DNA of 64,000 nt, from the NCBI GenBank assembly GCA_963691655.1, contig OY829326.1, positions 71,417,235 to 71,481,234 of the forward strand, read 5' to 3'. Within the stretch, counting starts at the first letter, position 1. Each line of letters starts with the position of its first letter. Both the position numbers and the translations under genes were made by a program. Positions 3,752-62,133 of this stretch are shown in pieces. Below the pieces are notes generated by a model. That model was not told where the DNA came from. It ran no database searches and worked only from the letters and a program-made list of their open reading frames with translations. The DNA is from Toxonevra muliebris (lineage: Eukaryota > Arthropoda > Insecta > Diptera > Pallopteridae).

Positions 3752-3791
3752 ATGAAGCTTTCAACTCTCCTTCTTTTCGAAAGTACATACA

Positions 3792-4826
3792 TTGAGAGTA
3801 TGTACATTGTACAATATATTGAGAGTATACTGTAAAAATTTCAGACAAAAACTCAAAATATTAACGAGAGCGCCTATTATTACTAGAATTCCAACTCTTT
3901 ATCCAACCAGCGAAGACTGGGAGTCGGGTTCGGTAACTCGTAATGCTGGTATTACCATCTTTACCGATGGCTCAAAGATGGAGAATGGAACTGGAGCTGG
4001 TCTCTACTCCGAAGACCTGCAACTAAGGCGGTCGTATCGTCTTCCTGACAGCTGCAGCGTTTTTCAGTCAGAGATTTTTGCTATTGAGAAAGCAGCTCGA
4101 CTTCTACAAGACAGTACGATTCCTATTTCGAATATCACTATCTTTACTGACAGTCAGGCTGCAATGAAGGCAATAGAATCCAAAATAGTTAAATCGGAGA
4201 TTGTAAAGATATGTCGTGCTTCACTGATGGCCATTGAGCACCACAAGGACACTCTCTGCTGGGTTCCTGGACATAGCAATATTGAAGGGAACGAAATAGC
4301 AGATGAAATGGCCAGAAGGGGCTCTGAAATGGACATTAACGAGGCGGATACCTCTATACAATCTCCGATGTGTGAACTATTTAGGAAAATAGACGAGTAC
4401 ACCATAGCGGTGTCAAATGACGCTTGGACTAACCTAGATGACTGTATAGTTTCACGGGCCTTGTGGCCTAGGTTAGATAGAAAGAGGACAAATGTCCTCT
4501 TAGGGCACAACAAATCTGCAGTACGTCTGCTCACAGGAGTCATAACTGGACATTGTGCTATTGCACCAATGCTTCAATGGTGGCGCATTCCAACGAGCGG
4601 ACTGTGCAGAAGTTGTCATGATGAAGAAGAGACAGAATCTATTCTTCACTTTCTATGTCAATGTCCAAGGCTGCAGATGAGCAAACTCCAATGTTTGGGG
4701 TCGCGCTTTTTCAATAGTCTAACAGAGATAACGAAAGTGGAACTATCGGATCTTCTTACCTTCATCCGGAGAACCAAATGGTTCAATAAAGACATTACCT
4801 GGACAGCTGACGGAAACCGTGGTTAG
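3792..4826 (+). pseudogene. LINE pol 3' part: RNase H plus HCCH-like zinc region
   Basis: This open frame ends at a TAG and holds the C-terminal part of a non-LTR retrotransposon polyprotein of the RNase-H-bearing kind (I/LOA/R1 group). Seen in order: RNase H with FTDGSK (first Asp), SEIFAIEKA (Glu), FTDSQAA (Asp), and WVPGHSNIEGNEIADEMA (His and last Asp), so all catalytic positions are kept; then CRSCHDEE...ILHFLCQC, the terminal Cys/His cluster. Recognisable homology starts near 3880, and the listed ATG is arbitrary. The reverse transcriptase and endonuclease are missing, so this is a 5'-truncated copy. The 3' untranslated part runs to about 4930 and ends in a TATACATA-type repeat. It resembles the copy at 60643-62133 (FTDGSKM, LPDxCSxFQxEI). 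It cannot move on its own. Confidence 0.8.
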
Positions 4827-10007: not shown

Positions 10008-11266
10008 TTGGGAGTATGAATGTATAAACTCGTAATTGTGACTAACTTCATATTTATCATACGCGCCATTTTTTTGACATTGACAGCTATTCTATCTCGA
10101 AGAGCGCCAAAAATACTATAAGAATTGATCTGTCAAATAATTTTCATAATTTTACAAAAGTGTTTTACTATAGCTGAAAATGTCGAATTTCATGCCAACA
10201 AAACAACATTTGCGGGAAGTTTTAATTTGCTTCTTCCATTTAAAGAAAAACGCAACTGAAGCACATCGTTTACTCACTGAAGCTTATCCTGACTGTGCTA
10301 TAGACGATAGAATGTGTCAGGTGTGGTATGCCCGTTTCAAAAGTGGTGATTTTGATGTTGAAGACAGGGAACGTTCAGGCGACCCGAAAAAGTTCGAAGA
10401 TGAAGAATTGAAGGCATTACTCGAAGAAGATTCATGTCAAACGCAACAACAACTAGCAGAATCTTTCGGAGTTGATCAATCAACCATTTCCAAACGATTA
10501 AAAGCATTGGGAATGGTTGAAAAGCAAGGGAATTGGGTACCGTACGATTTTTCACATGTGAACTGCTGATTGAACGACAGAAAAGTAAGGGTTTTCTGCA
10601 TCGTATTGTCACTGGCGATGAAAAGTGGATACGTTACGATAACCCAAAGCGTAAAAAATCATGGGGACCGCCCGGACATGCATCAACATCAACGGCAAAG
10701 CCAAACATCCATGGATCCAAGCTCATTCTGTGTATTTGGTGGGATATGAAAGGTGTCGGGTATTATGAGCTGTTGAAACCGAATGAAACGATCACTGGCG
10801 ACCGTTACCGACTACAATTGATGCGTTTGAGCCGAGCATTAAAGGATAAGAGGCCAGAATATGAGAATAGACACGACGAAGTTATTCTTCAGCACGACAA
10901 TGCTCGGCCGCATGTTGTAAGCCAAGCAAAAACATACTTGGAAACGCTGAAATGGGAAGTGCTACCCCACCCGCCGTATTTTCCAGACATTGCTCCTTCT
11001 GATTAACACTTGTTCCGATCGATGACAGATGGCCTGGCTGAACAGCTCTTCCGTTCTTTCGAAGAACTCAAAAAATGGGTCGATTCGTGGATACCCTCAA
11101 AAGATGAGGAGTTCTTTCGACACGGAATCCGTATGCTACCAGAAAGATGGGAAAAGGTTGTGGCTAACGATGGACAATACTTTAAAGAATAAATTTATAA
11201 TCACTTTTTCACAATAAATGTCAAAATTACGAAAAAAAATACGAGTTTATACATTCATACTCCCAA
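10008..11266 (+). mobile_element. mariner transposon with perfect 27-bp terminal repeats
   Basis: The left end at 10008 starts TTGGGAGTATGAATGTATAA. Its exact complement closes the element at 11266, with 27 identical bases. TA lies immediately outside each end (10006-10007 and 11267-11268), the standard mariner target duplication. The size, about 1.26 kb, is right for a full-length element. Perfect ends with a damaged transposase suggest a fairly young copy that could be mobilised only if an active relative exists. Confidence 0.95.
10180..11192 (+). pseudogene. mariner transposase, frameshifted and interrupted
   Basis: The ATG at 10180 opens a mariner transposase. The N-terminal part (about 129 codons) has the two DNA-binding helix-turn-helix regions, including QTQQQLAESFGVDQSTISKRL and the linker GNWVPYD. 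At about 10545 roughly ten codons are missing and the frame shifts. The second frame carries the catalytic core: VTGDEKW (first Asp), LQHDNARPH (second Asp) and FPDIAPSD (third Asp, the D of the DD34D type). The codon after APSD is TAA (11004-11006) where family members have Tyr. The same frame then continues with HLFRSM to RWEKVVANDGQYFKE and a stop near 11192. All catalytic Asps are kept, but the protein cannot be made whole. Motifs fit the mellifera-like subfamily best. Confidence 0.93.
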
Positions 11267-27456: not shown

Positions 27457-28545
27457 AGGGTGACAATCGTAAAGTGACGCACACATTTCAGCAGTTATTT
27501 TCAAAAGGACGTACTTCCATTAAGTACAATTAAGTGTTAACATTGCTGAATATATAAGCATTCATTTGAACCCCACCTCATTCAATATAACCTCCTTTAG
27601 CCTGCACACATGCCTTCAATCGATCCGGAAATCGTAGGACTGTTCGCCGCAGGACTTCCTGATCAAGTTCAGTCCAGGCTTTCTCTAATGAAATTGTCAG
27701 CGACTCCAGACTGTGGTGTTGAGATGCACAAGCCTTACTCTCTAAAATACTCCAAATAGAGTAGTCCATTGGATTCAAGTCTGGGGAGTATGGTGGCCAT
27801 TCTTGAGATGTTATGAATCCAGAAAAATTGTCTTTTATCCATGTTTGCGTTAATTTTGCCATGTGGGAAGGTGCAGAATCTTGCTGGAAAGTCCAGTTTT
27901 CATTTCCAAATGTATCTTGGGCCCAGGGAAGAACATGTTCATTAAAAATTTTTTCATCTGTAAACAAGATATTTTCAAAATTTTAACACGGAGGGGCGTA
28001 GCAACGCCTTGCATCTTTGCAGTCGCAAATCTTTCTTGTTTTTGTGTCAGATCTTGAGCTTTTCGGAGCTTGTACGGCTTAAGATTAAGCTTTGATTTTG
28101 CAATGATTCGCACTGTTTCACGGTTTACTCCCACTTCCTTAGCGGTTTTTCTCATTGAGCGCCTTGGATTTCGCTTGATTCGTTTACGAATTTTTTTCTG
28201 TTAAACCAGTACTGGCAACTGTTGAAAATTTTCCCCGGTCTCTATCTCCAAAACCCCTAGTTTCATTATATCGAATAATAGCTCAGTCTACCGTACGACT
28301 TGAAAAATTTAAAGCCTTTGCAATTTGACGGCTATTATAATTTGCCAAATGAAATTTCATAATTTCACGACGAATATTTTCCTTGTCCATTTTTATGGAA
28401 ATTTCAAAATGTAATAACAAAAATTCAAATGAAATTAAAAGCAAAGCCAATGATGAATGAATTTGCTTTTTAAATTAAAGTAAAGGTAAATGGCAAAGCT
28501 TGCTGCAGAGTATTAAACTTGCGTCACTTTACAATTGTCACCCTG
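27457..28545 (-). mobile_element. DD37D (maT-like) transposon
   Basis: CAGGGTGACAATCGTAAAGT at 27457 is matched by the inverted right end finishing at 28545, about 25 of 26 bases. TAAA flanks both ends (27453-27456 and 28546-28549). That is either a 4-bp duplication or a TA duplication with chance extension. The 1089-bp body carries one transposase frame on the minus strand, broken in several places. Confidence 0.9.
27578..28390 (-). pseudogene. DD37D transposase, one stop and frameshifts
   Basis: The minus-strand ATG at 28390 begins MDKENIRREIMKFHLANYN, followed by a helix-turn-helix (SRQIAKALNFSSRTVD) ended by a TGA. After a frameshift, IRKRIKRNP...TAKEVGVNRETVRIIAKSKLNLKPY gives the second helix-turn-helix. 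After another shift near 27960 the catalytic part is intact to its stop: FTDEKIF (first Asp), QQDSAPSH (second Asp) and YSPDLNPMDYSIW. Thirty-seven residues lie between the second and third Asp, which defines the DD37D (maT) class. The last residues are KGGYIE. It is not translatable as one protein. Confidence 0.9.
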
Positions 28546-46383: not shown

Positions 46384-48230
46384 TTTTAACATGGATAGAA
46401 CGGGACTATGCTGGAAGTGTGGACAAACCGGTCACTTTGCGACTAACAGCTCAAACTAGGAGAAGTGCATGTTATGCAATGAAGCACACATTCCAGGCAG
46501 CGCGAAATGCCTGCGTTTCAAAGAAGCGGAAAAAATAAGGAGTTCATGAAGATCCTGCAGCTCAAGGAGCTGCTGCGCTGGACCTTCTATGGCAAAACAA
46601 AGCGGAGCTGAAAATCAATGTAGCGATACTAGCGGAATCATACATCAACGTGAATTCACACATTTGGGTGTCGAATGAGACAGGTAAAGCTGCGGTATGA
46701 GCGATTTGGGATAAAATACCCCAGAGTAAAACGGCGGTAAAAGAGCCAGGCTACAACTGGGCAAAATTGGATGGTATATATATTTTAAGCTGTTACGCAC
46801 CACCTAGTTGGACGGCCATCAAATTCGAAGACAAGATGGCATCATTCACAACTGAAGCGCAGGGTAAGCAACCGATTATCATTGTTGGCGACTTCAACGC
46901 ATGGTCCAAGACTTGGGGCAACATTCGTACCAACATGAGAGGTACAGCGCTAGAAGAGAACCTCACAGCATTTTCCCTGCTGATGAACGAGGTAAGCCGC
47001 TACACGTTTGACACAGGCAGGGGCAGGCCGATAATTGACCTTGCCTTCGTCGACAGTGCAACAAAGTCGTGTGGGGTATCAGCGAGGTATACATATACAG
47101 CGACCATCATGTGATCGTGATAGACGCAAAAAAGGGCAGCATAAACTGGATGGAAAAAGAAGGCGTTCGACGAGGAAACATTTAAAGTTATTTGGAGTGA
47201 TGTATCGGTTGACGGCGCATCAGCAGAAAACTAGACTGGACAGATAGCCAAACTGATTAGTCGCTACGTGACGCGTCGCATCAATGCCAAGTCGTACTAC
47301 AGCAATATTCAGAAGACCTGCTTACTGGTGGACAGAGGAAATAGCGGAAGCAAGGCAAGGATAAACAAGAGCAAAACCAGCCAGGAGCCTTGTGATAGTG
47401 CGGATTTGGATCCATTAGGCCAAGCATTCAGGATGGTGATGCGGAAGTTCAGGGGGCCAAGGGCACTCCAACCTGCGTATCCAATAGCGATGCAGCAATT
47501 TGTGTGGTACCCCACAAGAGGTACTGGAGGACATCGAGACTGATGGTACACTGCAGATTGCCCCATGCATAACGACAGACGAAGTCTTATCGATTCTGCA
47601 CCAAATCGACGACAAACAAAGCTCCGGGGCTAGATAGAGAGATGGAGAGGTCTCAAGGCTGCAGTGAAAGCCAGACCACACGTTTTCGTGGAGCTATACA
47701 ATGCCTGCTTGAAAAAAAGAGTTTTCCCATATTTGTGGAAAAACCTAAGATTGGTGCTGCTCCTAAAATCGGGAAAACCGCCAGAGCAACCATCTTCATA
47801 CCATATGCTATGTATGCTGTACACAGCTGGCAAAATATTGGATTGTATTACATGCGTCAGGTTGCAGGAGTACCGGGAGAGGACAATAGGTCTATCTGAG
47901 CGTCAGTTTCGTTTTCGCAAGGGGCGGTTTAAGCTGGATACGATCCATACTATTATGTACATTGCACGGGAAGCAACGAGCTGCACTCGGTTGCAGAATG
48001 GCAGGAAAAAATACTGCTCAATTGTAACGCTGGATGTTATAAACGCTTTCAACTCGCCGAGAGCTGTGGAGAGCTAATATCGGTAGCTACTTCAGCTGCA
48101 GGTGGCTCTTATATGACATAGATGTTGAGCTCAACGAGTATAAGGTAACAGGTGGCGTACCACAGGGCTATGTACTGGGGCCAGCACTATGGAAAGCGGC
48201 TACCAAGGAGATTGATGCCAAAACTTGAAT
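46384..48230 (+). mobile_element. R1-like LINE, ORF1 end to mid reverse transcriptase
   Basis: In order on the plus strand: CCHC knuckles of the ORF1 protein (LCWKCGQTGHFA, then EKCMLCNEAHIPGSAKCLRF) at 46395-46535; the endonuclease start (NVAILAESYINVNSHIWVSNETGKAAV); the endonuclease core at 46767-47114 with ILSCYAPP, IIVGDFNAWSKTWGN, RGTALEE and RPIIDLAFV; SDHHVIVID; then reverse transcriptase pieces VFPYLWKNLRLVLLLKSGKPPE, ERQFRFRKGRFKLDTIHTI, IVTLDVINAFNS and VTGGVPQGYVLGPALW ending near 48215. Many stops and shifts. The YADD box and everything after are absent, so it is 3'-truncated, unlike normal LINE 5' truncation. The layout fits the R1 clade. Confidence 0.8.
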
Positions 48231-48234
48231 ACAC

Positions 48235-48850
48235 AGATATATTTTACATTTAAGAATATTTTTAATTTCCCATAAAACAACAATGCAAAAACAATAATAA
48301 TTTCTTCTCATAGAATTTAAAAAAATCAGAAAAATATATTCAAAAACACTAACGTAGAAAAAAAAAAAAATTCAATCAAAATACATAAAATCAAAACAAA
48401 ACGTTTACGTATTTATTTATATTCAAAGAATTCACAAATGTTGAATTTTTAATTTCAGAGGAACTGTAAAAAATTTGTTTTATCAAACACGCCCAACTCA
48501 ACCACACATACATTTTGTTCGCCTCACAGCAAAACCGAAAGCGAATTGCGACCTCTTAACATCTTTACTCTTTGGTATAAATCCATTTCGAGGGCGCATT
48601 ACTTGCATCGACTAACCACGGGATACATAAACGTCAGACAACTATATTTTTAAATGTAAGCCATATTGCAATATTATACTTTTTGGTGTTACTCGAATTC
48701 AAAGCAATTATCAAGTAGTTTGAATTGAAGTAAAACTGAAAATATTATTATATGCTTGCGTTCAGCTTCTGAAATTTTTGGATGCTAAAATATAATAATA
48801 TATATATGGGTAGTAATTAAATATATGTAAACATTAAAATATAATTCTAT
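48235..48850. other. Noncoding stretch downstream of the F-box locus
   Basis: AT-rich sequence between the broken LINE and the last exon of the minus-strand F-box locus. I saw no canonical AATAAA close behind the stop of that exon. Confidence 0.4.
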
Positions 48851-48852
48851 AG

Positions 48853-51723
48853 TTAGTACTCAACTTGACAAATCTTGAGGCTCCTTATAAGCATCGGTTC
48901 AGTCCACACCTGTTGGCGTTTCATTAATATATCGATTGCGGGAAGGTAAAATTTTTCCGTTAGATTACATCCTATAGAGATAACTTTCAATTTTTTACAT
49001 TCACACAGCAACTCCAACAATTCACTTTCCGAAACTTTTGTACACATAATACCCAAGTTGATTTCCTCCAAGTTCTTGAACGTTTTAAATTGTTGTATCA
49101 AAAAATTTTCATCATCATAATAAAAAAACTTCAATTTCTTCAATTTGTTCAGTTTCACTATGCTGTTGGCACAACTCCTTGATGGTTTAATAGATGTCAA
49201 ATATAAATTTTCGAGTTGCTTAGACGTAGCTAACAAATTATTCAGAATACCATCCAATGTATTATGATTATCTACACTGTCAATCGTAAGAGTTTTAAGT
49301 TTAGGCAGTTGTGCTATCCATGAATACTCAACATCTTTGATGAATGTCAGTTTGAGACATACCAACTCCCTGCAGTACTACCGATTTCTTGGAATGCATT
49401 ATTATCAAGTTTGCGGCAAAAAATTAATTCTAAAACTTTAAGTTTTTCGAGTGATTTGTAAATATTAACGAAATATGCAGATTCAATACCATAACAGGCT
49501 CGTAGGGCAAGTTTTTTAAGATTTTTTAATTCACACAAATGGTTTCCTGTAAATATTTAATTTAATAATAATTTAATATTCATGTAGCAAATATTTTACA
49601 ATTAAGTTTTATAGAACCGTTAAAGTGCTGTTTATCAGGTTTAATGAAACGTCCTATTTGTCGAAGTGACTAAGTCGCAACAGTGTATAAAGAGCAGGCA
49701 AATCGGTTCCTTTAGGAATACGCCATGATTCCTCATCACTGATCTTTGTGATGGTTCAACATTCTATATGTGTCTAATATTTGAAAGCGTAGCCGAGAAT
49801 TACCAGGTTTTTGTTTTCAAGTATTTTCTACTACTACTTACTACTACTATTATGGCACAACAGTCCTTGGAGGGCCAAGGCCGAGATTTTCGCATCCATT
49901 CATGTTGTGTGAGTTATATTTATACACGAATGGAGGGGTCCTACCAAGTCCGAACGGCGAAGTGAAAAGCTTTTCATATGAATTTTTACTCTTGGAGGTT
50001 TGCCATTGCCAGCCAAAAGGTGGTGCTGTGTAGAAAGATTTTTATTTTCTGTTTTTGATTTTAGAGCGTGTCGAGATATGAACCCGGACACCTCTGCGTA
50101 GCAGTCCAACACACTAACTACTAGGCTACGGCGACCACTTTTTCGCTGAACAGAAATGAGGAATGAAACATGGAACATACTTCGTTGCGCCGAGTACATT
50201 GAGCAAAATGAAGATTGGAAAGTTTTCAAACTATGAAATGTGGAGAAATATTCATAAGAATAGCGAGAATAAGATAGGAACAATAGAAATAGAAAGGATA
50301 ATAGAAAGTTAAGAAACGATTTTAGTTCCTGTGGCCAGTTTATTTAGTCTGATAGATTAAGGCAAAATAAACACTTTTTCATAAAAAAAAATAACCTTCT
50401 TTCCCAGTTTACGAGAAATCGGGTGCGAAAGTCCGAAGCGGACGGTGACAGAAGGTGAATATGACTCGCGAGGCCTAGAAATCAAAGAAAACATAAGAAA
50501 TTATCCAACTTGGGATGCAATAAAGAATGTGTGATGTAGAACGCGACAACAACAAATAATCGTCTCACAAGAAAATTTTATAAGATAAGATGGTTTTTTT
50601 ATACAAGGTAAAGCAGTTAGTTAGACGACCTCGATAGCCTATTGGATAGTGCACTAGACTTTCATCTGGGAGGTTCGGGTTCGATTCCCGTCTTCGTCTG
50701 GTGGTTAATTTTCATAACTTTCTTATATTCACTATCAATATGAAGTGTATGAGAATTATAAGATAGTGTACAAGTACACACATTGGTTGGTAATGGCAAA
50801 ACCACCAAGCCGATAAAAAATTGCCACACCGCCGTTCGGAATCGGCGTTAAACTGTAGGTCCAACTATGTGGTATCACAATGGGCCGTTCAGGCCTAAGT
50901 GTGTCTCTCGACAGCCACTCCAACCTAACCTAACCTAAAGCAGTTAGTTCTGCATTCTTAACTCGAAATGATTTTGACCGATATCTCGTAAACTGGGAGA
51001 GATATCGACTTTTTTCTTTTGTGTTTATTTTGCCTTAATCTAACAAAATATATTGTAACATCAGGGACCACAGGTGACTTTGTCCCCGATATCTTGTAAA
51101 CCAGGAAGTGGAAGATATTATTTTTTTACATTTTAAACATACCCGTAAGGTCGTGATTTCTGGTTAAAATGAGAGATTCTAATGCTGGCAATTCCTTAAT
51201 TTCCAAAATATCTGTGTCTTCAAGCCGACACTCATATAGCCACAAGTTTTTTAAGTTTTCCATTATATGTTGTAAACTTAGCACCAATTCTCTATTTTTA
51301 TTAATAGCAATATTCTGTATTGACGGTAAACGGAGATTATCAGGAATATTCACTTCAGGACCACAATATAACGATTTTACTCGACGTTTATATTCTTCAT
51401 TCCAATTTAAGTTAGAGTTATTAATTTTATCTAACGACAAATGAAGATGATTCCTATAAATATCAGAAAAACGTGTACAAACTCTGCCGAATTGTATTTG
51501 GTCATGTCTTGGAAGTTCTAATAGAATAAGATCTAGACAATCGTCGACCAGTTTAAGTATTGGAGCTTCTTCGGTGAAGTACTCAATTCCATCAGGAAAG
51601 TGCTCAACTTCCTCAGTAAAGTGCTCAACTTCATCAGTAAAGTGCGCAGCTTCATCGGGAAATTGCTCAGCTTCATCGGGAACGTGATCCACTTCATTTT
51701 GGAAATGCTTAAGTTTGATTAAA
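48853..51723 (-). CDS. F-box/LRR 3' cassette 2 (two exons, frameshifted)
   Basis: Exon A, 51143-51723: an acidic seven-residue repeat (NEVDHVPDEAEQFPDEAAHF...), then an F-box (LKLVDDCLDLILLELPRHDQIQFGRVCTRFSDIYRNHL) and the first LRR part, ending LTG at a GTATGT donor. Exon B, 48853-49546, after an ATTTACAG acceptor: LRRs (NLKKLALRACYGIESAYFV, LEKLKVLELIFCRKLDNNAF...), stopping after KICQVEY. It aligns along its length with cassette 1. Exon B lacks one base near 49376 (GGTAGTACTGC where a codon for Tyr is expected), shifting frame after NNAFQEIGS. With one more base its length would be in phase to the stop. There is no ATG in exon A before the F-box, and its first-base phase fits the donor at 54771, so it is probably an alternative 3' end of the upstream exons. 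Otherwise it is a decaying duplicate. F-box proteins link substrates to SCF ubiquitin ligases through Skp1; the target here is unknown. Confidence 0.7.
49829..50138 (-). mobile_element. SINE-B copy inside the cassette 2 intron
   Basis: On the minus strand it begins GTGGTCGCCGTAGCCTAGTA at 50138, continues with the B box GGGTTCATATCTCG, then the same body as the copy at 17706-18854 (GGCAATGGCAAACCTCC, AAGCTTTTCACTTCGCCGTT, ATTCGTGTATAAATATAACT), and ends in a (TAG)n tail at about 49829-49852. It lies in the same orientation as the host locus, within the intron between the two cassette 2 exons. No clear target duplication. Confidence 0.85.
50623..50935 (+). mobile_element. SINE-A copy with 14-bp target duplication
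   Basis: The tRNA-Glu-like head (AGACGACCTCGATAG..., B box GGTTCGATTCCCG) is followed by a body with TGGTAATGGCAAAACCACCA and GCCGTTCGGAATCGGCG, and a CCAACCTAACCTAACC tail. TAAAGCAGTTAGTT is exactly duplicated at 50609-50622 and 50936-50949. A perfect duplication indicates a recent insertion. It is in the cassette 2 intron, opposite in orientation to the gene. Confidence 0.92.
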
Positions 51724-51860
51724 CTTTTATGAACGATAAGTTTAACAGATTCCTCTCTTTCATATAAATTGGCACTGTATGAAAAAGTTAAGTTGACACA
51801 ATAATTCGCTTTCAGAAGATGTTGTCCTTCAATTAAGGGATATATTAATTCCAAATATAT

Positions 51861-54800
51861 TTAGTCAACAAACCTTAGAACTGATTTGGCAGCAAGATAT
51901 TCGGGGTCCTGAAATAAAATGCATATAAATAATTTGCATATTCCAGCTAAGAGAGAAAATATTAACAAAATGTTACCTCCAAAATTGACGGATCAATGGC
52001 TGAGTTGTAGGCTGAGAACACAACCATATTTTTCCGGGGCTTCAATAAATTTATCATTTTTAAAATAGTACAAGCATTAATACTTTTGTTAGGACTCTTC
52101 ACTGTTATACAGTTTAATTTCGTACAAAATTCCAATAACTTCAATAAATCGTTTTCAGTGATTATTCCACAGATATCAATATACTCCAAATTACTTAATA
52201 AACAAAGTAAATTAAATGAAGAATTATATAGTAACTTATTCAATATACGTCGACTGGAAAAAATAAGACGCTTTAACTGTGTCAGATGCGCTATTTCTGA
52301 AGTTATTTGTTTTCTCACGACGCGATCAAACTCTTCAAAATTCAACCACCGCACTTCAAAGGACTCCAAAGTATTCCTTTTAACTAGTTCATGTGTGAAA
52401 CGTATAAATTGTGGTGCAAGCGAATTTTCGTTTATGTAAACTTTAAGTTTTTTGAGCCTAAGCCTGGCTAAGCCTACATATTTTATCTCCGGATCGCATG
52501 TTATACTGAGATCTTCCAAATTTTCACAATGTGCGATCATTGCATTGAACGCATTATTTGAAAGTAAATCGCAACCCACTACATTCAATGCTTTAAGGTT
52601 ACGGAGGCACTTAAAAATGTCAACGAAATTAAACGCGTTTACACTTTTACATCCAGCGAGACCTAGTTCCGTTATAGTTTGCAGATTAGATAAGTTTGCT
52701 CCTATATAAAAAGTAAAAGCAGAATTAAGTTTTCTAAAGTATTAAAACAAAAAATAAACATTAAAAATAATGAAAAAATCTAGATGTGACTTTAATGGAT
52801 AGTGCACGCAATACTTTATTTATAGAGTGACCAAAACTGGCTTCGGTGAACCGGATATCCGTTTAAAAATTAAATGTAACCGAATCGGTTTCTTAAAAAA
52901 CTTTGCTGTTCAGAAACTGATTATTCGAGATAATCGAATAATTAAAATCTAATTTTTTCAGTACAATACATAACACGGTGCGACAGTAAAATACCTGGGA
53001 AGTTATACTATTTTTCTTGTAGGTCTTGTCGAGTAAAACAAGAGTCTGTATGGGAAATTTGCCAAACACCCCGAAAATCTTGATTTACCGTTAAAAAAAA
53101 CCGGTTTTGCGTACCTTTGCACTTATAAGCTTGTAACTTAGTGGATTATCAACAGATTTTCAGTTTCTTACTTGATTTAGGTTGACAACCTCGATAGTCT
53201 AGTGGGTAGTGCACTAAACTTTCACCTGGGAGGTTCAGGTTCGATTCCCGTCTTCGTCTGGAGGTTAATTTTCATAACTTTCTAAGAAATAGATAGTGTA
53301 CAAGTACACACCTTGGTTGGTAATGGCAAAACTACCAAGTCGAAATTGCCACACCGCCGTTCGGAATCGGCGTTAAATTGTAGGTCCAACTATGTGGTAC
53401 CACAATGTGTCGTCCAGGCCTAAGTGTTTCTCTCGACAGCCACTCCAACTTAACCTACTTGTTTTTAGAAGAAAAAAACTTATCCCTTTCAATTGATATA
53501 TATTTGACTGAAGAAAACTTGAGAAATTTTTGAGTATTTGTCCAGCAAACACAATTTTTTTCACTTTTTTCGCCTTTTCTCAACTTTGGCGATGCTTCTA
53601 CACACCATTTTATGAAGAAACCATGCTACTTGTGAATTTAATAAAAAAATATGTTTAATATCGAATACAACGCGTATTTGTTTTTAAAAATCGGTAAGTA
53701 ATTGACTGAAGTGACCAAAAATATTCTGAAATCATATTTGTTTTATTTTTTCCTTCGAAGCGCTTGTCAATTGTAGCGATTCTTGGTGAAAATGTTCATC
53801 GTTGAACTGGGCTAGGTTATCTGAGAAGAAGTCCAAATGCGAATGCAGGAAATGAATTTTTATATTTCTTTTGTACTCACATACTAAGTAAATAAATAAA
53901 TGAAACAGGAAAATAAATATCAGTTAAAATTGTATACGCAATTAAACACTGATGTCTACACATCGTCGATCGCGAGGGTCGTCACTCATTTTTTTTTGTC
54001 ACATAGTGTTATAGGAATAAAAATTATAAATAATATCACAATAAGTAATTAAAGGATACCTACCAGTAAGTTCAGGGTTATAACTGACATCAAGTACTTC
54101 CAATTTAGGGAATTGTTCCATAAGAGATATATGACTATTATTCAATCTGCATCCTACAAATTTCAGCGTCTTTATATATTTTAAATCTTTTAGTAGTTGA
54201 AGCCGAATTACAGGTTTATTTGTGATACATATTTTCTCTACTTTGATCAAATTCAAACCCTCGATCTGATCAATAATGGCATCATTTGTAATAAGTCTTT
54301 CAATATAATTTTCACATAATTCTGAATGGTTTATCTGGTTCAATAAGTTTACATCTTTCAGGATGAAATCCAAATGATCCTGAAAAATTTTACGAAAGCG
54401 TTTACATGTGGTAGCAAAATTATCCATGTCATGTGGAAGAAGTTGTTTAAAAATCATTCCCAAGATGATATCACTGAGTATTAGTATTTGTGCATCTTTC
54501 TGAGGATTGCTCAAGCGTTTCAATAAATGTCGGCTTTTCAGTACTCTATTGGAAAAAAAACAATTTACAAGAATGACAATTAACTAAATTTGATTTATAA
54601 AAATTTTTTTTGCTATTGGTTTCAATGACAAAATTAATATAATAAAAAACTTCCTAATCTTAAATTTTTTTTGATTTTTTTATCTATCTAGGTAAATTTA
54701 CTTTATCAAAGTTGATAAGAACTGACAATAAGATGTAAATTATTTGTTAAAGTAAGAAGTAATTACTTACTCAATGTCGATTTGATTACAGAACTCAATC

Positions 54801-56024
54801 CAAAATTTGCAGTCATATTGGAGTCCAACAATTTTCTTAATAACATCGAATTGTGAAAAATGCTTTTCAATCCGCCATTTTGCGATCTGTAAGTATATAT
54901 ATATTTAAGTATAACTTTCATTACTGTCGTTACAAAATGCATCTTTTATTGAACGATTTTTTTTAACTTACCATTTCTCCGTCTGAAGTAAAGACACTAA
55001 TTGTTGTGCATGATTTATCATCATCTAAATGAAACAGAAAACGAAATAAAATGTTGGTAATCATTTTTGAGGAGACTATGAAAATTAAATCTTGACCTTA
55101 ATTTTCAAAGTCATGACTTAAGTTCATGTTTAATTTGTTATTTGAATTATATATAAACAGGCTTAGTGAACAAATGTAGTCAAAACAACAACAATGTATA
55201 TAGAGACGGCCGTTTCGGAATCAGTCACAATTCCTCATCAGTGATCTTAAGGATAGTTCTTAGTCTTTCAATAATTCTATTAGTAGCTTATTTAGGATGC
55301 AGTAGTATGCAACTTGGATAAAGTAATAGTTTTATTTATGTTTTTCTGTTTATGTTTGAGTAAATAAATAATTTGTTGTTATATGAACAAATTTACCATT
55401 AGTTTTTATAAGGTTAGAGGAATTGCCAAAGTTTGATTTCGGCTCCGGCCAAAAATTCTCTGTCGGTAGACACTATTATAAATTCTCGAACGTGCCCAAG
55501 AAATTAATGTAATTTGTATCGGTCACGAATATATTTTCCACACCCTGGTGGAAACGTGTTAACTCACGTGGTTTTTAAAAATCTATGCATATTGGGAATT
55601 CGAATATATTTACCTTTCAGCTGCTCCATTTTTCGTAACTTCAGGGGCTGATTTTGTTCACTTGATGCCTCTTCATAATCGGTAAATGAAAATGTATATT
55701 TTTAATAGTTTTTAATGGAATATACCACCAAAAAAGAGAGAAATCATGTGAGAAAATGGTTCTTACCTCTAAAGCGTTTTAACTGATTTCGCTTACTACA
55801 GCTTGGCTTATCATCATCTTACAGAATTTAAAGAAATTAAGAAATCATTTGAAATTGAATTAAAGTATTTACCATTCAGCTGCTCCATTATGGGATCGTA
55901 ATTTTCTTTTCTGAAACCATAAATATTGTTTTAAACCAAATATTGCTCATTTATAAATATGTTATAATAATATGTAAGAAATATTGAAAATTACTGATGT
56001 TTTAACGATTGTGGCTGATCGCTT
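51861..56024 (-). CDS. F-box and leucine-rich-repeat protein, nine exons
   Basis: Exons on the minus strand: 55995-56024, 55873-55910, 55767-55817, 55614-55670, 54972-55024, 54771-54886, 54064-54545, 51977-52701, 51861-51908. All eight introns have GT and AG ends, and every junction keeps frame. The first ATG in frame is at 55888 (MEQLN), giving 515 residues; exon 1 is open, so the true start may lie further upstream. The small exons encode acidic/basic linker (DDDKPSCSKRNQ, EASSEQNQPLKLRK). Exon 6 gives IAKWRIEKHFSQFDVIKKIVG, exon 7 the F-box (ILSDIILGMIFKQLLPHDMDNFATTCKRFRKIF) and first LRRs, exon 8 further LRRs (LQTITELGLAGCKSVNAFNFV...), exon 9 ends SVLRFVD. By family it would be a substrate receptor of an SCF E3 ligase; its substrate is unknown. 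Intron 7 carries a SINE (53181-53455). Without the last splice, the protein would end at 51962 (EVTFC). No specific gene name is recognised. Confidence 0.8.
53181..53455 (+). mobile_element. SINE-A copy in intron 7 of the F-box gene
   Basis: It has the same head, body and tail as the copy at 50623 with scattered changes and small deletions. TACTTGATTTAG (53169-53180) and TACTTGTTTTTAG (53456-53468) are an imperfect target duplication. It is therefore older than the 50623 copy. Confidence 0.88.
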
Positions 56025-57108: not shown

Positions 57109-57419
57109 CACGTTCGCGGACACTCAAAATTGTATCGAGGTGCAAAAAGAGACACATGGCGGCTCTCTTAAAGTAATCGTAACATTTAAATTTTTTTCCC
57201 CCACGTTCCCAAGTTCTAACAATATGACATTTTATTAGTTATATACACTGAATACTAAAGAATTTACTTCGATATATAGCGCACATTTGTTGTGGATTAT
57301 GTGGACGCTATATAGAATTGAATGCCGAAATTTATATTATAGATTTGAATGCTATAGCATTCACGTCATATTGTGACAGCATGAAAATGAATGCTATAGC
57401 ATTCACGTCCGCGAACGTG
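57109..57419. mobile_element. piggyBac-type MITE with TTAA duplication
   Basis: CACGTTCGCGGAC at 57109 is mirrored exactly at the right end (57407-57419). TTAA flanks both (57105-57108 and 57420-57423), the strict piggyBac target. Inside the right half the 16-base palindrome GAATGCTATAGCATTC plus ACGTC occurs twice (about 57349 and 57389). Length 311 bp, noncoding. Confidence 0.87.
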
Positions 57420-57424
57420 TTAAC

Positions 57425-60642: not shown

Positions 60643-62133
60643 AGACTCTAAAAACCTATACCAAATATCTAGGGGTAGTTGTGGACAGCAAATTGCTGTG
60701 GAAGCTTAATGTTGACGAGAGAGTGAAGAAGCCAATCAATGCTCTGTACGCATGCAAAAAGATTTGGAAGCACATGGGGTCTGTCACTCTCTCTTATGCA
60801 TTGGTGCTACACAGCCATTGTTAGACCTATACTGCTCTACGGTGTTTTGGTATGGTGGGCTATAACTAAAAAGAAAACGTATATCAAGCCTTTGGAAAAG
60901 GTTCAGCGGCTGTCCGCGCTATGAGCTATGAGAACAACTCCAACGGCAGCTCTTGAAGCTATTCTCAACCTGCCGCGAATTGATCTCTTCGTAAAAAATC
61001 GGGCAGCAAAATCGGCTGAAAAACTACGGGTTACTGGACAACTATGCTACAGTTCCTTCGGACATAGCTCAATTAGTCGGAACACATCTGATTCAGATTA
61101 CGTGATCCCTAAATTGAGCTCTGGAAAGAGGATAAAAGCTGTTATTGAACAGGAAGGCTGGCGTAAGGGTATGGAACTAGAACGCAAATCCTTCAATATT
61201 TTCACGGATGGCTCAAAAATGGTTGCGGGGGTGGGCGCTGGTGTTTACTGTCGTGAGCTAAACATCAGAAAGCCCTTCAGGCTTCCTGATTGCTGCAGCA
61301 TATTCCAGGCAGAAATAATTGCCGCTAGGAAGGCTGCGGAGCTTGCAAACAGTGTTGCCACTATCAACTCAACAATAAACATATATAGATAGTCAATCAG
61401 CTATAAAAGCGTTGACATCACACTGGACATCATCCAAAATTGTTCTTCAGTGCAGAGCAGCAATGAAGAAACTGACTACTAAGCGTAGGCTGCGTATCTA
61501 TTGGGTATCTAGTCACAAAGGCATAGATGGAAATGAGATTGTCGACAAAATCGCGGAAAAAGGAACTAAGCTGCCTGAGGATCAAATCAGCGAAGTACTA
61601 ATCCCTCTGCAAGTAGCTAATTATAACCTAGAAGCACGCATGTGGAAGAAAGCGATAGCTAGGTGGAGAAATATACCCACATTTAAAATCGCTAAAGTCA
61701 TGTGTGACCCCTACAGCGAGAGGTACGCAAATTCTGTTATATCGTTCAATCGTAGGGACTAGAGAACAGTAATTGGCGTACTAACTGGCCATTGTTTGGT
61801 GGCAACGCACTTGCTTAAATTAAAACTAACCGACAATGATAATTGCAGGAAATGTATGGAGCAAGATACGAGGGAAACTCTAGAGCATCTTCTTTGCTTC
61901 TGTCCAGCGCTCACTAGAACTCGATTAACATACTTAGGAGCTCCACAGATTGAGGGTCTGAACGAGGTCGCTAAACTGGGGGTTAACTGTCTTTTAAAGT
62001 TTACTAACCACACTCGCATCTTAAATGACGAATACACTCGATAAATAATTCCTAGGACTCCTATCTAGTATTGCTGAGGACCTAAAGGTATATGCGTGGC
62101 TTCGGCCAGCCAGTACTACCTAACCTAACACAA
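60643..62133 (+). mobile_element. 5'-truncated LINE (RT end, RNase H, Cys/His) with 10-bp duplication
   Basis: CCTGTGGTAC is duplicated at 60633-60642 and 62134-62143. Plus-strand pieces in order: YTKYLGVVVDSKLLWKLNVD (RT thumb), YTAIVRPILLYGVLVWWAI, AMRTTPTAALEAILNLPRID, then RNase H with FTDGSK, FQAEIIAA, DSQSAIKAL, WVSSHKGIDGNEIVDKIA, and the Cys/His end CRKCMEQDTRETLEHLLCFCPAL, with a stop near 62044. The 3' end is CCAGCCAGTACTACCTAACC plus TAACACAA. It is broken by a stop at 60922, a frameshift near 61385 and a stop near 61760. LOA/I-type judging from RNase H and the RT end. Confidence 0.87.

What the first reader, a model, noticed from the sequence alone, without database searches (positions are those of the whole stretch)
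51143..56024. One set of 5' exons, two alternative F-box/LRR 3' cassettes
The downstream F-box exon (51143-51723) has no upstream Met, no room for its own N-terminal exons, and begins only 138 bp past the stop of cassette 1. Its acceptor phase equals that of exon 7, so exon 6 (donor at 54771) could splice to either F-box exon. This would make one locus encode two F-box substrate receptors with a common N-terminus. It is inferred from phases only. The alternative is a decaying tandem duplicate.
Basis: partly seen in the sequence, partly recalled or inferred. Interest (0 to 1): 0.75.

Follow-up and report, generated by a model that had tools for sequence, protein, structure and literature searches.

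The report
One gene, two fused F-box modules
What looked like two interchangeable 3' ends of an insect gene is more likely one long gene whose protein carries two F-box/leucine-rich-repeat modules in a row, although this particular copy has a frame break in its second module.

Summary
The window lies in an unnamed, probably fly genome (G000, 491 Mb). The two F-box/LRR cassettes, the shared 5' exons, the missing Met and the phase match are real. Two features were missed. Cassette 1 ends in a 35-nt exon (51908-51874) with a phase-2 donor, and only 99 nt separate it from the phase-2 acceptor of cassette 2. Splicing there gives one open frame into the second F-box, and the cassette 1 "stop" becomes intronic. 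All 8 two-module units examined in G000 keep a short exon with a phase-2 GT donor and an AG acceptor; 6 of 8 read open from that acceptor into F-box 2; 3 of 8 (B, D, E) have no stop in either module. Best reading: a partial tandem duplication of an RRM-F-box-LRR gene, fused in line into one two-module protein. Alternative use of two cassettes is not excluded but has no support of its own: single genes show the same acceptor phase, so the match is expected by descent. Constraint on the fusion exon is weak, and the window copy has a frameshift in LRR 2 (near 49377), so it is partly decayed. No transcripts could be examined.

The parts
55873..55888 (-). candidate first coding exon e1 (begins with ATG)
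   Evidence: sequence and splice consensus only
55767..55817 (-). candidate exon e2
   Evidence: in frame with e1 by eye; a similar peptide lies upstream of module 1 in copy D (67% over 18 residues)
55614..55670 (-). candidate exon e3, holds an alternative Met (MEQLK)
   Evidence: sequence only
54972..55024 (-). exon e4, start of the shared N-terminus
   Evidence: 53 nt in A, B and D; little constraint, omega 0.64-0.90 over 17 codons
   Evidence: 116 nt in A, B and D; omega 0.14-0.23; profile match to calyptrate RRMs E 3e-4, probability 40%, reversed control E 0.5
54064..54545 (-). exon 7, F-box 1 and first LRRs of module 1
   Evidence: Pfam F-box 21.1 bits; homologous exons in the other units
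51977..52701 (-). exon 8, LRRs of module 1, phase-0 donor
51874..51908 (-). 35-nt exon (DPEYLAAKSVL + AG), phase 0 in, phase 2 out
   Evidence: counterpart in 8 of 8 units: 35 nt in A, B, C1 and D, 29 in C2, 41 in E, F and G, each leaving 2 bases
   Evidence: 99 nt here, 98 in B, 101 in D, 68 in C1, with no AATAAA or ATTAAA (4 of 4); the longer gaps of C2, E, F and G hold 2, 4, 4 and 4 such signals
51143..51774 (-). fusion exon: linker with heptad repeats, then F-box 2 and first LRRs of module 2
   Evidence: frame open from the acceptor into F-box 2 in 6 of 8 units (A, B, C2, D, E, G), closed after 22 and 16 codons in C1 and F; Pfam F-box 22.3 bits; lengths 632, 551 and 500 nt in A, B and D differ by multiples of 3
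51577..51697 (-). 21-nt tandem repeat in the linker, 5.8 copies, 0% indels
48865..49546 (-). LRR exon of module 2, frameshifted near 49377 in this copy
   Evidence: open in B, C2, D, E and G; broken in the window copy
48689..48784 (-). candidate last exon (HPKISEAERK...) after a phase-0 donor
   Evidence: a similar exon stands at the same place in D (read by eye); coordinates; inferred

Best explanation
The region is one gene of an RRM-F-box-LRR family in which the part from the F-box exon onward was duplicated in tandem and then joined in line. The 35-nt last exon of module 1 (51908-51874) is spliced across a 99-nt intron to the module 2 F-box exon (51774-51143), giving one polypeptide: degenerate RRM, F-box 1, LRR 1, acidic linker, F-box 2, LRR 2. 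By analogy with F-box proteins it would present two Skp1-binding F-boxes and two LRR receptors on one chain, a bivalent SCF substrate receptor. Seen in the sequence: the anatomy, the frames, the kept splice dinucleotides and the paralogs. Inferred: that this splice is the main one, that the protein is made, and that it works in an SCF ligase. The window copy is a partly decayed member, because its LRR 2 is frameshifted.
For: Of 8 units examined in G000 (A = window, B, C1, C2, D, E, F, G), 8 have a short exon that leaves 2 bases and is followed by GT, and 8 have an AG acceptor before the F-box 2 exon; the codon across the junction is Ser in 7 of 8 (AGT or AGC; ACT in C2); the frame from the acceptor is open into F-box 2 in 6 of 8. 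The joined exons contain no stop in B (891 codons), D (878) and E (874); these are partial models without start exons. Module 2 is open in 5 of 8 (B, C2, D, E, G) and the F-box and LRR exons of module 1 in 6 of 8 (A, B, C1, D, E, F). Linker length differs between A, B and D by multiples of three. Omega for module 2 is 0.60-0.61, module 1 0.44-0.55. Neutral substitution of B's module 2 gave 15-22 stops on average and no open run in 2000. Module 1 forms one group including E and F (98/95), and modules 1 and 2 of A-D branch in compatible order. No in-frame Met precedes F-box 2 in A, B, D or E; C2 has one.
Against: No transcript or protein evidence. The A-D donors (AAG|GTTTGT or GTTGGT) are weak by recalled consensus. 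The fusion exon itself is little constrained (omega 0.63, 0.77, 0.89) and the short exon shows no measurable constraint (12 codons, omega 1.00, 0.65, undefined). The linker alone stays open by chance in 9-20% of neutral runs. Only 3 of 8 units have both modules open. Canonical poly(A) signals do occur in the four longer gaps (C2, E, F, G). No annotated two-module protein was found in three protein searches; the relatives are single-module. No match to a junction query crosses the junction, so no retrocopy shows the splice. E's module 2 is a long branch of unsure place. Read without splicing, the tail (R-L-V-D) resembles the tail of single genes (K-L-S-F-D) about as well as the spliced continuation does (by eye).
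Confidence: 0.65

Rival explanations
1. Alternative 3' cassettes: exon 54771 splices either to 54545 (module 1, ending at the TAA near 51862) or to the module 2 exon, giving two receptors with one N-terminus.
For: The phase-2 donor at 54771 fits both acceptors. Module 2 has no Met of its own in A, B, D and E and no second e5 was found. A fresh tandem duplication would create this choice. Poly(A) signals exist in the longer gaps of C2, E, F and G.
Against: The phase match is expected by descent (3 of 3 single genes). The adjacent short exon fits as well and needs no skipping of three exons. Cassette 1's unspliced tail differs between units (RFVD*, RLVD*, RFVDYIFNIIGFP*, RLVDYIKRNQ*), whereas GT at its donor is kept in 8 of 8. 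No canonical poly(A) signal lies in the window's own gap.
Confidence: 0.12
2. Module 1 is a complete gene ending at the stop near 51862, and module 2 is an untranslated, decaying tandem duplicate.
For: Frameshift in the window's LRR 2; module 2 also broken in C1 and F; weak constraint on the fusion exon.
Against: Module 2 is open over both exons in 5 of 8 units despite module 2 dS of about 0.4-0.6, against 15-22 expected stops under neutrality.
Confidence: 0.15
3. Module 2 is translated as a separate protein from its own promoter or as a second cistron.
For: Larger gaps in C2, E, F and G (0.6-1.8 kb); one Met in C2's linker.
Against: Gap of 68-101 nt in A, B, C1 and D and no in-frame Met before F-box 2 in A, B, D or E.
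Confidence: 0.05

Closest known systems
Calyptrate fly RRM-F-box-LRR proteins (database names such as 'putative RNA-binding protein EEED8.10', Stomoxys calcitrans)
   Same: F-box followed by LRRs, with an RRM called by Pfam in 3 of 6; 25-31% identity over 38-42% of the fused query
   Different: single module, 568-700 aa
F-box/LRR (FBXL) substrate receptors of SCF ubiquitin ligases
   Same: F-box followed by LRRs
   Different: here two such modules are encoded in line; Skp1 binding not tested
Proteins with two F-box motifs, e.g. soybean GmFBX505
   Same: two F-boxes in one predicted protein (one passage of PMC5412402 seen)
   Different: one plant gene named in passing in that passage
Tandem-duplicated F-box genes of Caenorhabditis
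   Same: expansion by tandem duplication with gene structure changes (passages of PMC8665587 seen)
   Different: 'two F-box', 'double F-box' and 'multiple F-box' do not occur in its main text

Membership tests
F-box/LRR (FBXL) proteins | F-box domain | tested here: met
   Pfam F-box over cut-off in both cassettes of the window and two stretches in fused B, 40.4 bits
F-box/LRR (FBXL) proteins | leucine-rich repeats C-terminal of the F-box | tested here: met
   LRR model PF24758: 34.0 bits in a module 2 piece, 27.0 in module 1, cut-off 27
F-box/LRR (FBXL) proteins | binding to Skp1 within an SCF ligase | not testable with these tools
   needs pull-down
RRM-F-box-LRR (EEED8.10-like) family | homologous F-box/LRR part | tested here: met
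   (best E 9.5e-22, query copy B); tree places single genes and modules on opposite sides of one branch
RRM-F-box-LRR (EEED8.10-like) family | RRM | tested here: inconclusive
   Pfam RRM only in E at E 0.072, below cut-off, and not in A, B or D; profile comparison E 3e-4 over 45 columns, probability 40%
gene with alternative 3' cassettes | one donor, two acceptors of the same phase | tested here: met
   phase 2 at 54771, 54545 and 51774
gene with alternative 3' cassettes | first cassette has its own conserved protein end | tested here: not met
   unspliced tail and stop differ between A, B, C1, C2 and D
gene with alternative 3' cassettes | poly(A) site after the first cassette | tested here: inconclusive
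   no AATAAA or ATTAAA in the gaps of A, B, C1 and D, but 2-4 in those of C2, E, F and G; other signals not tested
gene with alternative 3' cassettes | both junctions seen in RNA | not testable with these tools
   no transcript data held
pseudogene of a tandem duplicate | disrupted frame | tested here: met
   window LRR 2 is frameshifted near 49377; but module 2 is open in 5 of 8 units

The most novel reading that the evidence does not exclude
A lineage-specific insect gene family encodes double-headed F-box/LRR proteins: one chain with two F-boxes and two LRR receptors. Each could hold two Skp1-Cul1 arms or pair two substrates. The family arose by partial tandem duplication plus use of a splice donor in the last exon of the first module.
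Probability: 0.48. Interest if true: 0.5.

Novelty: new variant of a known kind. Interest (0 to 1): 0.35.

Why it matters
F-box receptors normally carry one F-box (general knowledge). A conserved family with two F-box/LRR modules in line would be a natural bivalent substrate receptor and a clear case of how partial tandem duplicates can fuse through a splice donor in the upstream copy's last exon rather than become alternative cassettes. It also warns that equal splice phase between duplicated exons is expected by descent and does not by itself indicate alternative splicing.

Tried and rejected
Searches for annotated relatives: fused copy B found 6 single-module calyptrate fly proteins (7995 candidates scored); module 1 of the window found none at E 0.001; a four-row profile found 7 low-scoring LRR proteins, one of them with F-box annotations, covering 6-25% of the query, and did not recover the six, so absence there says little. 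Retrocopies spanning the junction: a 103-aa query from copy D gave 6 matches among 13 scored, none crossing the junction. Rfam and tRNA scans of the window: nothing. Bacterial promoter scan: not meaningful here. That the fusion exon begins with module 1's own C-terminal tail was considered and not claimed, since the unspliced reading resembles the single-gene tail about as well. An RRM relic in the linker was considered and not tested. Literature: 'two F-box domains' gave one paper, seen in the listing only; with 'insect' none; five other wordings gave two papers, one passage of one of them read; broader searches showed no such family in the rows listed. One passage of PMC6921459 was seen and is irrelevant.

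The acceptor phase of the single genes, first stated without having printed that DNA, was computed and holds.

Full report
What was checked. The window lies at C1:71417235-71481234 of genome G000 (491 Mb, 96 contigs, no name given). The only annotated relatives found that share the architecture are from calyptrate flies, so it is probably a fly; the species was not identified. Both F-boxes score above Pfam's cut-off.

After the LRR exon of cassette 1 comes a 35-nt exon, 51908-51874, that ends in AG|GT at phase 2. The "stop" of cassette 1 is bases 11-13 of the following intron. Ninety-nine nt after the donor is a CATACAG acceptor, also phase 2, and the frame behind it runs through F-box 2. So the acceptor is 51774 rather than 51723, and the nearest compatible donor is 51874, not 54771. 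The LRR exon of cassette 2 (49546-48865) has a frame break near 49377 in this copy.

Copies elsewhere in the genome. A search with module 1 found 45 matches, among them the same arrangement at other places. I examined eight units: A (window), B (C1:71.11-71.12 Mb), C1 and C2 (82.02-82.05 Mb), D (95.70-95.71 Mb), and the distant E, F and G (112.04, 112.95 and 80.68 Mb). In 8 of 8 a short exon (35 nt in A, B, C1 and D; 29 in C2; 41 in E, F and G) leaves two bases and is followed by GT, and 8 of 8 have an AG before the F-box 2 exon; in G the usual AG is lost and one a few bases on is used. The codon across the junction is Ser in 7 of 8. From the acceptor the frame is open into F-box 2 in 6 of 8; it closes after 22 codons in C1 and 16 in F. 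The gap is 99, 98, 101 and 68 nt in A, B, D and C1, without AATAAA or ATTAAA; it is 623, 1558, 1783 and 1747 nt in C2, E, F and G, with 2, 4, 4 and 4 such signals. The joined exons hold no stop in B (891 codons), D (878) and E (874); these models lack start exons and E's lacks e4. Module 1 is broken in C2 and G; module 2 is broken in A, C1 and F. Thus 3 of 8 have both modules open. The family is in birth and death.

Selection and history. Omega for module 1 is 0.44, 0.48 and 0.55, and for module 2 0.60, 0.61 and 0.60 (pairs A-B, A-D, B-D; for A the part up to the first stop was used, which includes about 10 codons after the break). Taken alone the fusion exon gives 0.63, 0.77 and 0.89, and the 12-codon short exon 1.00, 0.65 and undefined, so constraint there is weak or unmeasurable. 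Neutral substitution of B's module 2 at K 0.25-0.55 gave 15-22 stops on average and no open run in 2000, but the 48-codon linker alone stays open in 9-20% of runs (no indels simulated). In a tree of 20 modules, drawn with a midpoint root, the 8 single-module rows form one group (99/99), module 1 of A-D, E and F another (98/95), and module 2 of A-D another (100/100). E's module 2 is a long branch of unsure place. Modules 1 and 2 of A-D branch in compatible order, so the unit was probably copied whole. If E's module 2 belongs with the other second modules, the duplication is older than the split of A-D from E-F.

Why the phase match is not evidence for alternative splicing. In the three single-module genes examined on C3, an AG acceptor of the same phase stands at the matching place (before the residues aligned to VLKS of exon 7): 3 of 3. 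A tandem copy beginning at that exon would inherit the phase. Donors 54771 and 51874 then both fit. The in-line splice is favoured because GT at the 51874 donor is kept in 8 of 8 units, because it needs no skipping of three exons, and because cassette 1's unspliced tail is not conserved.

Results against this reading. There is no RNA. The A-D donors are weak by recalled consensus. No two-module protein turned up in the protein searches, though those score only candidates sharing short words. No match crosses the junction in a retrocopy search. Poly(A) signals exist in the four longer gaps. The unspliced tail R-L-V-D resembles the tail of single genes about as well as the spliced form does (by eye). 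The half RRM rests on a 45-column profile match and a sub-threshold Pfam match in E alone.

Verdict. One set of 5' exons and two F-box/LRR modules is right; alternative cassettes is unsupported though not excluded; an in-line fused, two-module F-box protein is the best reading, and the window's own copy is partly decayed.

Noticed in passing
window 50617-50932 and 53177-53457: Two copies (91-94% identical) of a SINE-like repeat, one in the F-box-to-LRR intron of each module; a further copy is visible upstream of e5 in unit B (by eye). No tRNA was called in it.
   Followed up: partly
window 46701-47114: Piece of a non-LTR retrotransposon (endonuclease-reverse transcriptase, Pfam PF14529 56.7 bits) downstream of the gene; a neighbouring open frame at 47634-48077 looks like reverse transcriptase but was not scanned.
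   Followed up: partly
window 10174-10569 and 27578-27982: Remains of Tc1/mariner-type transposons (Mos1-type HTH 58.4 bits; DDE_3 30.8 bits).
   Followed up: partly
window 3756-4826 and 60925-61392: RNase H matches, 51 bits and 15.6 bits (the second below Pfam's cut-off), probably from non-LTR retrotransposons.
   Followed up: partly
window 51577-51697: 21-nt tandem repeat without indels coding for acidic heptads between the modules; the exon is longer here than in B or D.
   Followed up: yes
L053 (C3:7852000-7861999): Three tandem F-box/LRR open-frame pairs, each F-box frame with an in-frame Met before the F-box, so tandem arrays of apparently separate genes also exist in this genome.
   Followed up: partly
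window 57332-57420: A short motif (gacgtgaatgctatagcattc) occurs twice upstream of the gene (by eye).
   Followed up: no
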